From: Candidatus Saccharimonadota bacterium
GTDB taxonomy: Bacteria; Patescibacteriota; Saccharimonadia; Saccharimonadales; Saccharimonadaceae
Assembly (NCBI GenBank): GCA_015655045.1
Contig: JAATFU010000005.1
Location: 248,001 to 312,000, forward strand
DNA: 64,000 nt
Direction of reading: 5' to 3'
Part shown: one piece after another, positions 60,997-63,800 of the stretch
Numbering within the stretch: position 1 is the stretch's first letter
Layout of the letters: each line of letters begins with the position of its first letter
The notes under the pieces: generated by a model
Told to the model about the DNA's origin: nothing
Seen by the model: only the letters and a program-made list of their open reading frames with translations
Databases searched by the model: none
Made by a program: the position numbers and the translations under genes

Positions 60997-61356
60997 TCAG
61001 GAGTGAGAACTTTTATACAGCTTCGCCTGGATGAACAGCTGCTTGAGGCACTCACTCAGCTCGTCATAGGGCATAGTCAGAACCTCGCTTGATGAGACAA
61101 TAATGGCAATGTCTTGAGCTTCACGTAGCTCTGGAAGTTGCAGCCGCACGTATTCATAGATACGACGACGGATCCGGTTACGCGACACCGCGCTCTTAAT
61201 AACTTTTTTACTCACCACAACCGCAATGCGGGCAATTTTACGGTGGGGGTTATCAATCGCTTTAATCGTCATAAGGCGCGAGCGAACTGCTTGGCCATTT
61301 TTATAGACATAGCGTAAGCTACTGTGGCCATGGAATCGGTGTACAAAAGAAATCAT
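60997..61356 (-). CDS. rnpA: Ribonuclease P protein component
   Basis: 'RIAVVVSKKVIKSAVSRNRIRRRIYEYVRLQ' RNR motif. Confidence 0.95.
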   Translation of the reverse strand: MISFVHRFHGHSSLRYVYKNGQAVRSRLMTIKAIDNPHRKIARIAVVVSKKVIKSAVSRNRIRRRIYEYVRLQLPELREAQDIAIIVSSSEVLTMPYDELSECLKQLFIQAKLYKSSHS

Positions 61357-61388
61357 CTTTTTAGTATAGCGTATACGGAGGCTTGTCT

Positions 61389-62003
61389 TTATCTTCCCAC
61401 TTCAAATTCAAGTAGTCGTAATAAAAGAATGTGTAGGTTTGTATAAGGGGTATTTTTTGGATTATTGATTCGTCGACTATTACGTATAGCAAGTTCAACT
61501 CTTTGGGGGTCGTTATCTAATAGCTTAGATAGCCATACTAAGTTCGTCTTATCGTATCTAGTGTTAATACCTAGCTTGTGTAGCTCTTTGGTAATGAGCG
61601 CTTCGAGGCCTTTGCCCGTCTCGTTTGTCGCAGAAGCAGTAAGATGTTGGAGGAGGAATATTTCAAACCGGGGATCAGAGAAGGCGAGCCGAACACCCTT
61701 CTTTTTAGCGTAAGACTCAAGCACTGCGAGGGTACGTACCATAACATCCCTGTCGCATACCGCCCACACTTCAATATCCTCTGGCGAGATATCCAATTTC
61801 GTTGCCAGTTTATTTCTCTCGATTAGCGCTTTATCAATAAGTCTTTCGTGTTGACCCTTGCCACCAACGACTTCTATAACCACTCTTGAAGAGCTGTTAA
61901 TCCTCCGTTGCCTCATAACTATTTTTAGATATTCAGGCTCAGTTACCCTGCCCTCGCAGCAAATCAAGATGGTAATTGGTTGTATATCACCAGAACCCAC
62001 CAT
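61389..62003 (-). CDS. RloB-like TOPRIM-type putative nuclease
   Basis: 'ITILICCEGRVTEPEYLKIV' (catalytic E), 'EVWAVCDRDVM' (DxD-like), 'FSDPRFEIFLLQHL' RloB hallmark. Confidence 0.88.
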   Translation of the reverse strand: MVGSGDIQPITILICCEGRVTEPEYLKIVMRQRRINSSSRVVIEVVGGKGQHERLIDKALIERNKLATKLDISPEDIEVWAVCDRDVMVRTLAVLESYAKKKGVRLAFSDPRFEIFLLQHLTASATNETGKGLEALITKELHKLGINTRYDKTNLVWLSKLLDNDPQRVELAIRNSRRINNPKNTPYTNLHILLLRLLEFEVGR

Positions 62004-62013
62004 CTCTTCAATT

Positions 62014-63228
62014 CTACCTTTCTATTACCTGAGGCTTCGCTCCATAGAGTCCTTGGCGATACCTCTTTTCAAAAGATTCTCCGAGTCGAACCGACTTATC
62101 ACTGAGTGGAGTAATGATACTCTCTTCAGAGAAATTCTTCTCCACAAAAAAGATGTCCTCGCGGGCCAATAAGGCATCTCTCATAAGTGCTGTGTCGTGA
62201 GTATTAATAATCAGCTGCGCGCCGTGTTTGTTTCTCGAAGACTTGAAAAGTGACACGATAAAGATACAAATGTCTGAGTGGAGATATGCGCCAAATTCAT
62301 CAAGGTACAAGAGTTTACCGTGTGCGAGAGTGTCAACAATTGGCGCGGCCAATTCAAAGAATTTTCTCGTACCACTTGATTCATTCGTTGCCAGGTCAAA
62401 GACCTGCTCACCAACAACTTTTTTATTCTTGTCTCTTATTGTGTGAGTTGTCTTGATCGTGAAGGCATTATTACTATTTTGGGTGAGTGTGCTCTTTGTG
62501 TCCTCGCTCAAGGGTAACTGTTTAACGACATCGAGTGGCAGTGTGATATTCTCAACATTAAACGATCGAATCCAAAGGTCAGCTTCACCAAGTAAGTCGG
62601 TAACTTCCTTCTGCATATCTGGGTGTGCCCGTAGCTGGTCGACTGTCCACTGTATTGTTTCTGATGGGTTACCAGAGAGAACATTGATACCTGTAAGCCA
62701 TTTAAAAAGAAGGTTAGAATATTCGTTATTGTTTTCTCGGGCTTTTGTTATTAAAAGAACCGTTGGGCGAGTATCTGTAAATAATTTCTTACCAAACTTA
62801 TATTTTTCTGCGGTTGCATTCAACCCCCCCAAGGTTCGCTTAAAAATAGTTCGTGGTTTCATTGTATTGCTCGCGAACTCACTTAAGTATTCAGTTTTAA
62901 CTGAATCCGCATCAACAGAAAAGCCATAGATGAAATGCCTACTATCCTGTTTAAACTCAATTTCAAATTCGGATGGCTGCAGCCGACTCTGTGCGTTTAA
63001 CATAAATGGCTCGGTGGGAATCTTAATGAGGTTTGTATTGTTTGAATTAATAATAAACCACTGAATAAATTGAAGGGCCTTTACGATGTTTGACTTCCCG
63101 CTTGCATTCGGCCCATAAAAAGCCGTGATTTTTCGTGTTTCGTGTCGACTGCGAAAGTCTATTTCTTGCATACCATTAAACGAGCGGTAGTTTTTTATCT
63201 TTAAACGAAGGAGTTGTGACGTGTTCAT
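62014..63228 (-). CDS. RloA-like AAA15/21 ABC-class ATPase
   Basis: 'LRLKIKNYRSFNGMQEIDF', 'FYGPNASGKSNIVKALQFI' Walker A, 'LLYLDEFGAYLH' Walker B, 'LIINTHDTALM'. Confidence 0.9.
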   Translation of the reverse strand: MNTSQLLRLKIKNYRSFNGMQEIDFRSRHETRKITAFYGPNASGKSNIVKALQFIQWFIINSNNTNLIKIPTEPFMLNAQSRLQPSEFEIEFKQDSRHFIYGFSVDADSVKTEYLSEFASNTMKPRTIFKRTLGGLNATAEKYKFGKKLFTDTRPTVLLITKARENNNEYSNLLFKWLTGINVLSGNPSETIQWTVDQLRAHPDMQKEVTDLLGEADLWIRSFNVENITLPLDVVKQLPLSEDTKSTLTQNSNNAFTIKTTHTIRDKNKKVVGEQVFDLATNESSGTRKFFELAAPIVDTLAHGKLLYLDEFGAYLHSDICIFIVSLFKSSRNKHGAQLIINTHDTALMRDALLAREDIFFVEKNFSEESIITPLSDKSVRLGESFEKRYRQGLYGAKPQVIER

Positions 63229-63235
63229 AAGAGAA

Positions 63236-63266
63236 TACTATCAAATCTATACTTTAAAGTCAATAT
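63236..63266 (-). promoter_or_regulatory. Own promoter of the RloA-RloB pair
   Basis: Minus strand TTGACT-TTAAAGTATAGATTTGA(17)-TAGTAT just upstream of 63228. Confidence 0.6.
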
Positions 63267-63426
63267 ATTGTAGTAAACATACAATAATTATCTTTTCTGG
63301 TAGATATATCTCCATTTTTTACTTTTATTACTACGCTACTGCCCTATGGCAGTAAACTCACTTACTACTATAGAGCGGTGTGTAAGTAACTTCTTTACTT
63401 CCTTAAATTAAGTGTCAGTAGATATA

Positions 63427-63454
63427 AAAACAACACCTCACTGGGTGTTGTTTT
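63427..63454 (-). terminator. Intrinsic terminator of rpmH
   Basis: AAAACAACACC/GGTGTTGTTTT 11-bp stem, A/T-tracts both sides. Confidence 0.8.
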
Positions 63455-63461
63455 GTTGGCT

Positions 63462-63599
63462 CTAAGCCGTAATTCTTGAGCGTCCTTTAATACGACGTCG
63501 TTTGATCACCGCGCGGCCGCCTTTGGTAGCAATACGAGCACGAAAGCCGTGCGTACGGGCGCGATGTCGGGTGTGGGGTTGGTAAGTTCGCTTTGGCAT
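63462..63599 (-). CDS. rpmH: 50S ribosomal protein L34
   Basis: RC translation [45 protein letters not shown] (45 aa; below ORF-track cutoff). Confidence 0.95.
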
Positions 63600-63683: not shown

Positions 63684-63800
63684 TTATCCTCTTATTTGAG
63701 CGGCTTATCCACATATTAACTGAGGTGGCGTGAGTGTGTGCATAACCAGTACCTCTATACTACTCTCGTGACTTCGTGCTTGTTGTGGTTGTGGAAAACC
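63684..63800. promoter_or_regulatory. Putative oriC / DnaA-box region upstream of dnaA
   Basis: TTATCCACA at 63706-63714; TGTGCATAA at 63738-63746 (RC TTATGCACA); TGTGGAAAA at 63790-63798 (RC TTTTCCACA); AT-rich rpmH-dnaA intergene. Confidence 0.8.

What the first reader, a model, noticed from the sequence alone, without database searches (positions are those of the whole stretch)
61389..63228. RloA/RloB-like ATPase-nuclease pair inserted between rpmH and rnpA at the replication origin
dnaA-rpmH-rnpA-yidC-jag is among the most conserved bacterial gene orders, with rpmH and rnpA normally adjacent. Here an AAA15/21 ATPase (GPNASGKS, LYLDEFG) and an RloB-like TOPRIM protein (CEGRVTEPEY, DRDV, DPRFEIFLL) sit between them. 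rpmH has its own terminator (63427-63454) and the pair its own TTGACT-N17-TAGTAT promoter. ATPase plus TOPRIM pairs (OLD-like, PARIS AriA/AriB, RloAB) are linked to phage defence. The origin location, and the effect on rnpA transcription, are unusual.
Basis: partly seen in the sequence, partly recalled or inferred. Interest (0 to 1): 0.78.

Follow-up and report, generated by a model that had tools for sequence, protein, structure and literature searches.

The report
AbiL phage-defence pair inserted near origin
A small-genome bacterium has picked up a known kind of two-gene anti-phage (abortive-infection) system and carries it in the gap between two housekeeping genes beside the replication origin; the kind of system is ordinary, the address is unusual, and it appears to leave the neighbouring genes undisturbed.

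Summary
Between rpmH and rnpA, about 0.5 kb from the DnaA boxes, lie an ABC/AAA_21 ATPase (62014-63228, minus) and an RloB protein (61389-62003, minus), 10 bp apart. More exactly, this is AbiL (AbiLi + AbiLii/RloB), not PARIS: AbiLi 246 bits against 90 for AriA; RloB matches AbiLii and no AriB model. RloB has TOPRIM topology with the E17 and D84xD86 motifs, and a profile comparison with OLD-type TOPRIM gives E 5e-5. The pair is a derived insertion: 76 of 77 collinear relatives have 0-181 bp there, and no other genome of the genus has a close homologue. The best relative (60%) is in another family of the order, at another site, so the pair moves horizontally. The claim that the insertion should disturb rnpA is not supported: in the clade rpmH already ends in its own terminator and rnpA already starts from its own -10 box 4-12 bp before its ATG. 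Both are retained here, so the pair fills an insulated slot. One other genome (G059) has an unrelated exchanger gene there. Most likely mechanism (inferred): the ATPase holds and releases a TOPRIM ribonuclease, possibly a tRNase, that halts translation on infection. New member of a known kind; modest interest.

The parts
62014..63228 (-). AbiLi-like ABC/AAA_21 ATPase, 404 aa; Walker A G39-S46, signature-like S284-G-T287, Walker B D310-E311, H-loop H344
   Evidence: AbiLi 246 bits; AAA_21 E 1e-27; motif columns invariant in 23 homologues; pLDDT 90; Foldseek: PtuA, Rad50, OLD ATPases
61389..62003 (-). RloB/AbiLii-like TOPRIM-type nuclease, 204 aa; E17, E22, D84, D86
   Evidence: PF13707 E 1e-21; conserved acidic residues; pLDDT 86; hhalign with OLD-like TOPRIM, E 5e-5
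63235..63263 (-). probable promoter of the pair: TTGACT-N17-TAGTAT with a TG before the -10; 6 nt to the ATG, so a leaderless mRNA is likely
   Evidence: (consensus match only, not above the shuffle count)
63427..63454 (-). rpmH intrinsic terminator; a terminator at this place is usual in the clade
61357..61368 (-). retained -10 box of rnpA (TATACT, 6 nt before the ATG); a -10 box at this place is usual in the clade
63229..63426 (.). AT-rich spacer between the rpmH terminator and the ATPase start, holding the pair's promoter-like site; 63229-63461 is 31% G+C against 47% for the window
60997..61356 (-). rnpA, RNase P protein (flank)
63462..63599 (-). rpmH, ribosomal protein L34 (flank)
63705..63798 (.). 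three DnaA-box-like sites, the only ones in the 64-kb window, upstream of dnaA: probable oriC

Best explanation
A horizontally acquired AbiL abortive-infection module. SHOWN: a conserved two-gene operon (ABC-type ATPase AbiLi, then RloB/AbiLii) with intact motifs, inserted in this lineage between the rpmH terminator and the rnpA -10 box. INFERRED: AbiLi binds ATP, oligomerises, holds the RloB TOPRIM nuclease inactive and senses an infection signal; on infection it releases or activates RloB, a two-metal nuclease. By analogy with AriB the target is probably RNA, perhaps tRNA, and cutting it stops translation and aborts phage growth. Location, INFERRED: the slot is tolerated because it lies between two independent transcription units, not because of any functional tie to rnpA, rpmH or the origin.
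For: Family: PADLOC AbiLi E 8.7e-74 and AbiLii E 1.5e-18; Pfam RloB and AAA_21. Linkage: RloB lies directly downstream on the same strand of AbiLi in 53 of 60 loci from many phyla. Catalytic residues conserved. TOPRIM: model topology beta-alpha-beta-alpha-beta-alpha-beta with E17 after strand 1 and DxD after strand 3; hhalign with OLD-like TOPRIM E 5.1e-5, pairing E17 and D84xD86 with the TOPRIM acids, against a best of 0.017 in 60 block shuffles. Insertion; no close homologue in the 27 other genomes of the genus. Transfer: own + G235 (another family) are sisters at 99/93, AbiLi 60% against YidC 44%. Insulated slot: -10 box before rnpA in 29 of 29 nearest loci against a shuffle mean of 3.3, and rpmH terminator in 24 of 29 against 0.1. 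Literature: an RloB-family TOPRIM_OLD toxin (D44) neutralised by its AAA partner (PMC10440598); AbiLii of Fusobacterium toxic in E. coli (PMC3985639); AriB is a TOPRIM tRNase released by an ATPase (PMC12409363).
Against: Function is untested. Foldseek of the RloB model against the PDB gave no TOPRIM protein and nothing at E <= 0.001, and no solved structure matches credibly by sequence. PMC3985639 saw no antitoxin effect of AbiLi on F. nucleatum AbiLii and no toxicity of the Lactococcus AbiLii in E. coli. An RNA or tRNA target is analogy only. G+C does not mark the pair as foreign (rank 11% of same-size windows).
Confidence: 0.82

Rival explanations
1. The pair works like AbiL/OLD but cuts DNA, as GajA and OLD do, not RNA.
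For: The RloB profile matches OLD-like TOPRIM domains, and GajA, an OLD-family nuclease, cuts DNA (PMC10440598). The ATPase model matches Rad50 and OLD ATPases.
Against: The effector is a free-standing small TOPRIM protein, as in PARIS, whose AriB cuts tRNA (PMC12409363). Nothing here tests the substrate.
Confidence: 0.3
2. The insertion is selected for its place: origin-proximal dosage, or co-expression with rnpA, links the nuclease to RNase P and tRNA supply.
For: About 0.5 kb from the DnaA boxes to the pair's start; transcribed away from the origin, in the direction of rnpA; only 32 bp between the RloB stop and rnpA.
Against: rnpA keeps its own -10 box. No other AbiL locus examined lies near rpmH, rnpA, yidC or jag within the few kb fetched. 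The only other gene found in the slot is an unrelated CaCA-type exchanger.
Confidence: 0.05
3. A decaying passenger or an assembly artefact with no function.
For: Single genome; the closest relative (G235) has an in-frame TGA in its RloB.
Against: Both frames intact, all motif residues kept, promoter-like site present, junction inside a 332-kb contig collinear with relatives on both sides.
Confidence: 0.08

Closest known systems
AbiL (AbiLi/AbiLii) of Lactococcus lactis; RloA/RloB
   Same: Both proteins, gene order, family models (PADLOC AbiLi 246 bits, AbiLii 66 bits; Pfam RloB)
   Different: Sequence divergence; own sub-clade found so far only in this order; chromosomal, origin-proximal site instead of a plasmid
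PARIS (AriA/AriB)
   Same: ABC ATPase plus separate TOPRIM-type effector; ATPase scores 90 bits with an AriA model
   Different: AbiLi model scores far better; the effector is RloB/AbiLii and matches no AriB model at E <= 0.1
OLD / Gabija GajA
   Same: AAA_15/21 ATPase and an OLD-like TOPRIM relationship
   Different: Two separate genes, not a fusion; no GajB-type helicase gene alongside
Septu PtuA and retron Ec78 ATPases
   Same: Best Foldseek neighbours of the ATPase model
   Different: Partner is a TOPRIM-type protein, not an HNH nuclease

Membership tests
AbiL (AbiLi/AbiLii) | ATPase of the AbiLi family | tested here: met
   PADLOC PDLC02335 E 8.7e-74, residues 4-401
AbiL (AbiLi/AbiLii) | RloB/AbiLii protein directly downstream, same strand | tested here: met
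   10 bp apart; PF13707 E 1e-21; AbiLii E 1.5e-18; the same order in 53 of 60 loci
AbiL (AbiLi/AbiLii) | Intact ATPase motifs | tested here: met
   Invariant columns G39, N41, G44, K45, S284, G286, T287, D310, E311, H344
AbiL (AbiLi/AbiLii) | Abortive-infection phenotype | not testable with these tools
   needs phage challenge
TOPRIM fold | Alternating beta-alpha fold with Glu after strand 1 and DxD after strand 3 | tested here: met
   AlphaFold2 model, strand 11-16 then E17 and strand 77-83 then D84xD86; coordinates themselves could not be inspected
TOPRIM fold | Profile similarity to accepted TOPRIM domains | tested here: met
   hhalign E 5.1e-5, prob 67%, against shuffles of 0.017 or worse; modest; the TOPRIM sequences were cropped by motif
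TOPRIM fold | Foldseek match to a solved TOPRIM protein | tested here: inconclusive
   no PDB hit at E <= 0.001; the only BFVD hit at that level is another RloB-like protein, TM 0.68
PARIS | AriB effector | tested here: not met
   P0001 matches only AbiLii in PADLOC up to E 0.1
OLD / GajA | ATPase and TOPRIM fused in one chain | tested here: not met
   two ORFs

The most novel reading that the evidence does not exclude
The rpmH terminator - rnpA promoter gap beside oriC is a safe landing slot for foreign genes in this lineage (AbiL here, a cation exchanger in G059), giving defence cargo high origin-proximal dosage without cost to the ribosome/RNase P genes.
Probability: 0.12. Interest if true: 0.4.

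Novelty: new member of a known kind. Interest (0 to 1): 0.27.

Why it matters
It documents an AbiL sub-clade moving among families of small-genome Patescibacteria (CPR), bacteria whose phage defences are poorly known, and shows how a conserved origin-side gene cluster can take an insertion without breaking either transcription unit. It does not change what is known about AbiL.

Tried and rejected
PARIS and OLD membership. Effect on rnpA transcription. Insertion sequence, target duplication or flanking inverted repeats: only short imperfect matches, none bounding the insert. Foreign base composition: not an outlier. Close viral copies: none in IMG/VR for the ATPase; only distant ones, at most 35% identity, in phage records. 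Plasmid copies are distant too, at most about 35%. PDB sequence search for RloB: nothing credible. The viral search used a single protein, so distant viral homologues were not excluded.

Full report
WHAT IS THERE. On the minus strand, in transcription order away from dnaA: rpmH (63599-63462), its terminator (63454-63427), a 198-bp AT-rich spacer, an ATPase gene (63228-62014), 10 bp, an rloB gene (62003-61389), 32 bp, then rnpA (61356-60997), yidC and jag. The only three DnaA-box-like sites of the window lie at 63705-63798, between rpmH and dnaA, so the pair starts about 0.5 kb from the probable origin. GC skew over 104 kb has a shallow minimum around 304-330 kb of contig C8, weakly consistent with an origin there. 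The genome is 848 kb and 99% complete. A genome of the same phylum (G687) carries an AbiLi identical to that of a named Berkelbacteria record, so the phylum is Patescibacteria/CPR; Saccharimonadales is my inference, not a tool result.

WHAT THE PROTEINS ARE. The ATPase matches PADLOC AbiLi at 246 bits and AriA at 90 bits, Pfam AAA_21 at E 1e-27. Walker A, the signature-like SSGT, Walker B and H-loop residues are invariant across 23 homologues. Its model (pLDDT 90) is nearest to PtuA, Rad50, OLD and SMC-type ATPases. The small protein matches Pfam RloB at E 1e-21 and PADLOC AbiLii at E 1.5e-18. Its model (pLDDT 86) shows the TOPRIM order of strands and helices, with E17 after strand 1 and D84xD86 after strand 3. 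Profile comparison with OLD-like TOPRIM domains taken from Patescibacteria gave E 5.1e-5 and paired exactly these acids, whereas unrelated families gave 0.08 or worse and 60 block-shuffled profiles 0.017 or worse. Foldseek against the PDB did not find TOPRIM proteins, so the fold assignment rests on topology, motif, profile and the published HHpred statement that RloB is related to OLD_TOPRIM (PMC10440598).

A CONSERVED OPERON. In 53 of 60 AbiLi loci from many phyla the RloB gene is directly downstream on the same strand. Pfam finds RloB in all 26 proteins of alignment A3. In this order RloB is sporadic: 11 of 393 genomes.

AN INSERTION. In 77 relatives where rpmH and rnpA are collinear on one stretch, 76 have 0-181 bp between them, including all 21 such members of the genus. 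The exception, G059, holds a 323-aa CaCA-type exchanger (named from its sequence, not by a family search) in the same slot. G004 and G037 have the two genes about 12-16 kb apart by rearrangement, G092 has rpmH inverted, and in five more rpmH lies on another contig than rnpA. Among the 28 held genomes of the genus only this one has a close AbiLi; G026 has two distant ones and G007 a more distant ATPase. In the tree the closest relative is G235, of another family (99/93), 60% identical, against 44% for YidC. Its copy lies beside a tRNA-Arg gene. Eight AbiLi of this order form one clade (100/100), so the sub-family circulates within the order.

THE NEIGHBOURS ARE NOT DISTURBED. In the 29 nearest loci, this one included, a -10-like box ends 4-12 nt before the rnpA ATG in all 29 (shuffles: mean 3.3, maximum 9), and an rpmH terminator is found in 24 of 29 (shuffles: mean 0.1). 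Here both are kept: TATACT-AAAAAG-ATG at 61368-61354 and the terminator at 63427-63454. The pair thus sits between two independent transcription units, and has its own TTGACT-N17-TAGTAT six bases before its ATG. The site search itself is not above chance, so promoter activity is likely but not shown.

MECHANISM. Established for relatives: an RloB-family toxin is neutralised by its AAA partner (PMC10440598); Fusobacterium AbiLii is toxic in E. coli, though its AbiLi did not neutralise it (PMC3985639); AriB, a TOPRIM effector held by the ATPase AriA, cuts tRNA (PMC12409363). For this pair everything after 'intact operon with intact motifs' is inference.

JUDGEMENT. A new member of the AbiL family at an unusual but apparently neutral address.

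Noticed in passing
window 61357-61368 and L008-L036 upstream of rnpA: A -10 box 4-12 nt before the rnpA ATG in all of the nearest relatives, and 8 of 48 large window ORFs with a -10-like box 6-8 nt before the start: leaderless or nearly leaderless transcripts may be common in this lineage.
   Followed up: partly
L039:3284-4255 (G059): A 323-aa CaCA-type cation exchanger gene occupies the same terminator-promoter slot between rpmH and rnpA.
   Followed up: partly
L117:6530-6532 (G235): The RloB gene closest to this one carries one in-frame TGA where this protein has glycine or a neighbour of it; a nonsense change, a sequencing error, or (unlikely, as a single case) a TGA=Gly donor. Its AbiL lies beside tRNA-Arg(TCT).
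   Followed up: no
L129/L130 (G004), L043 (G037): rpmH and rnpA are about 12-16 kb apart, in G004 on opposite strands: rearrangements of the origin-side cluster within the genus and family.
   Followed up: partly
L120 (G337): An AbiL pair close to resolvase-like ORFs, suggesting a mobile context.
   Followed up: no
L126 and L127 (G026): A genome of the same genus carries two other, distant AbiL pairs from different branches of the family.
   Followed up: partly
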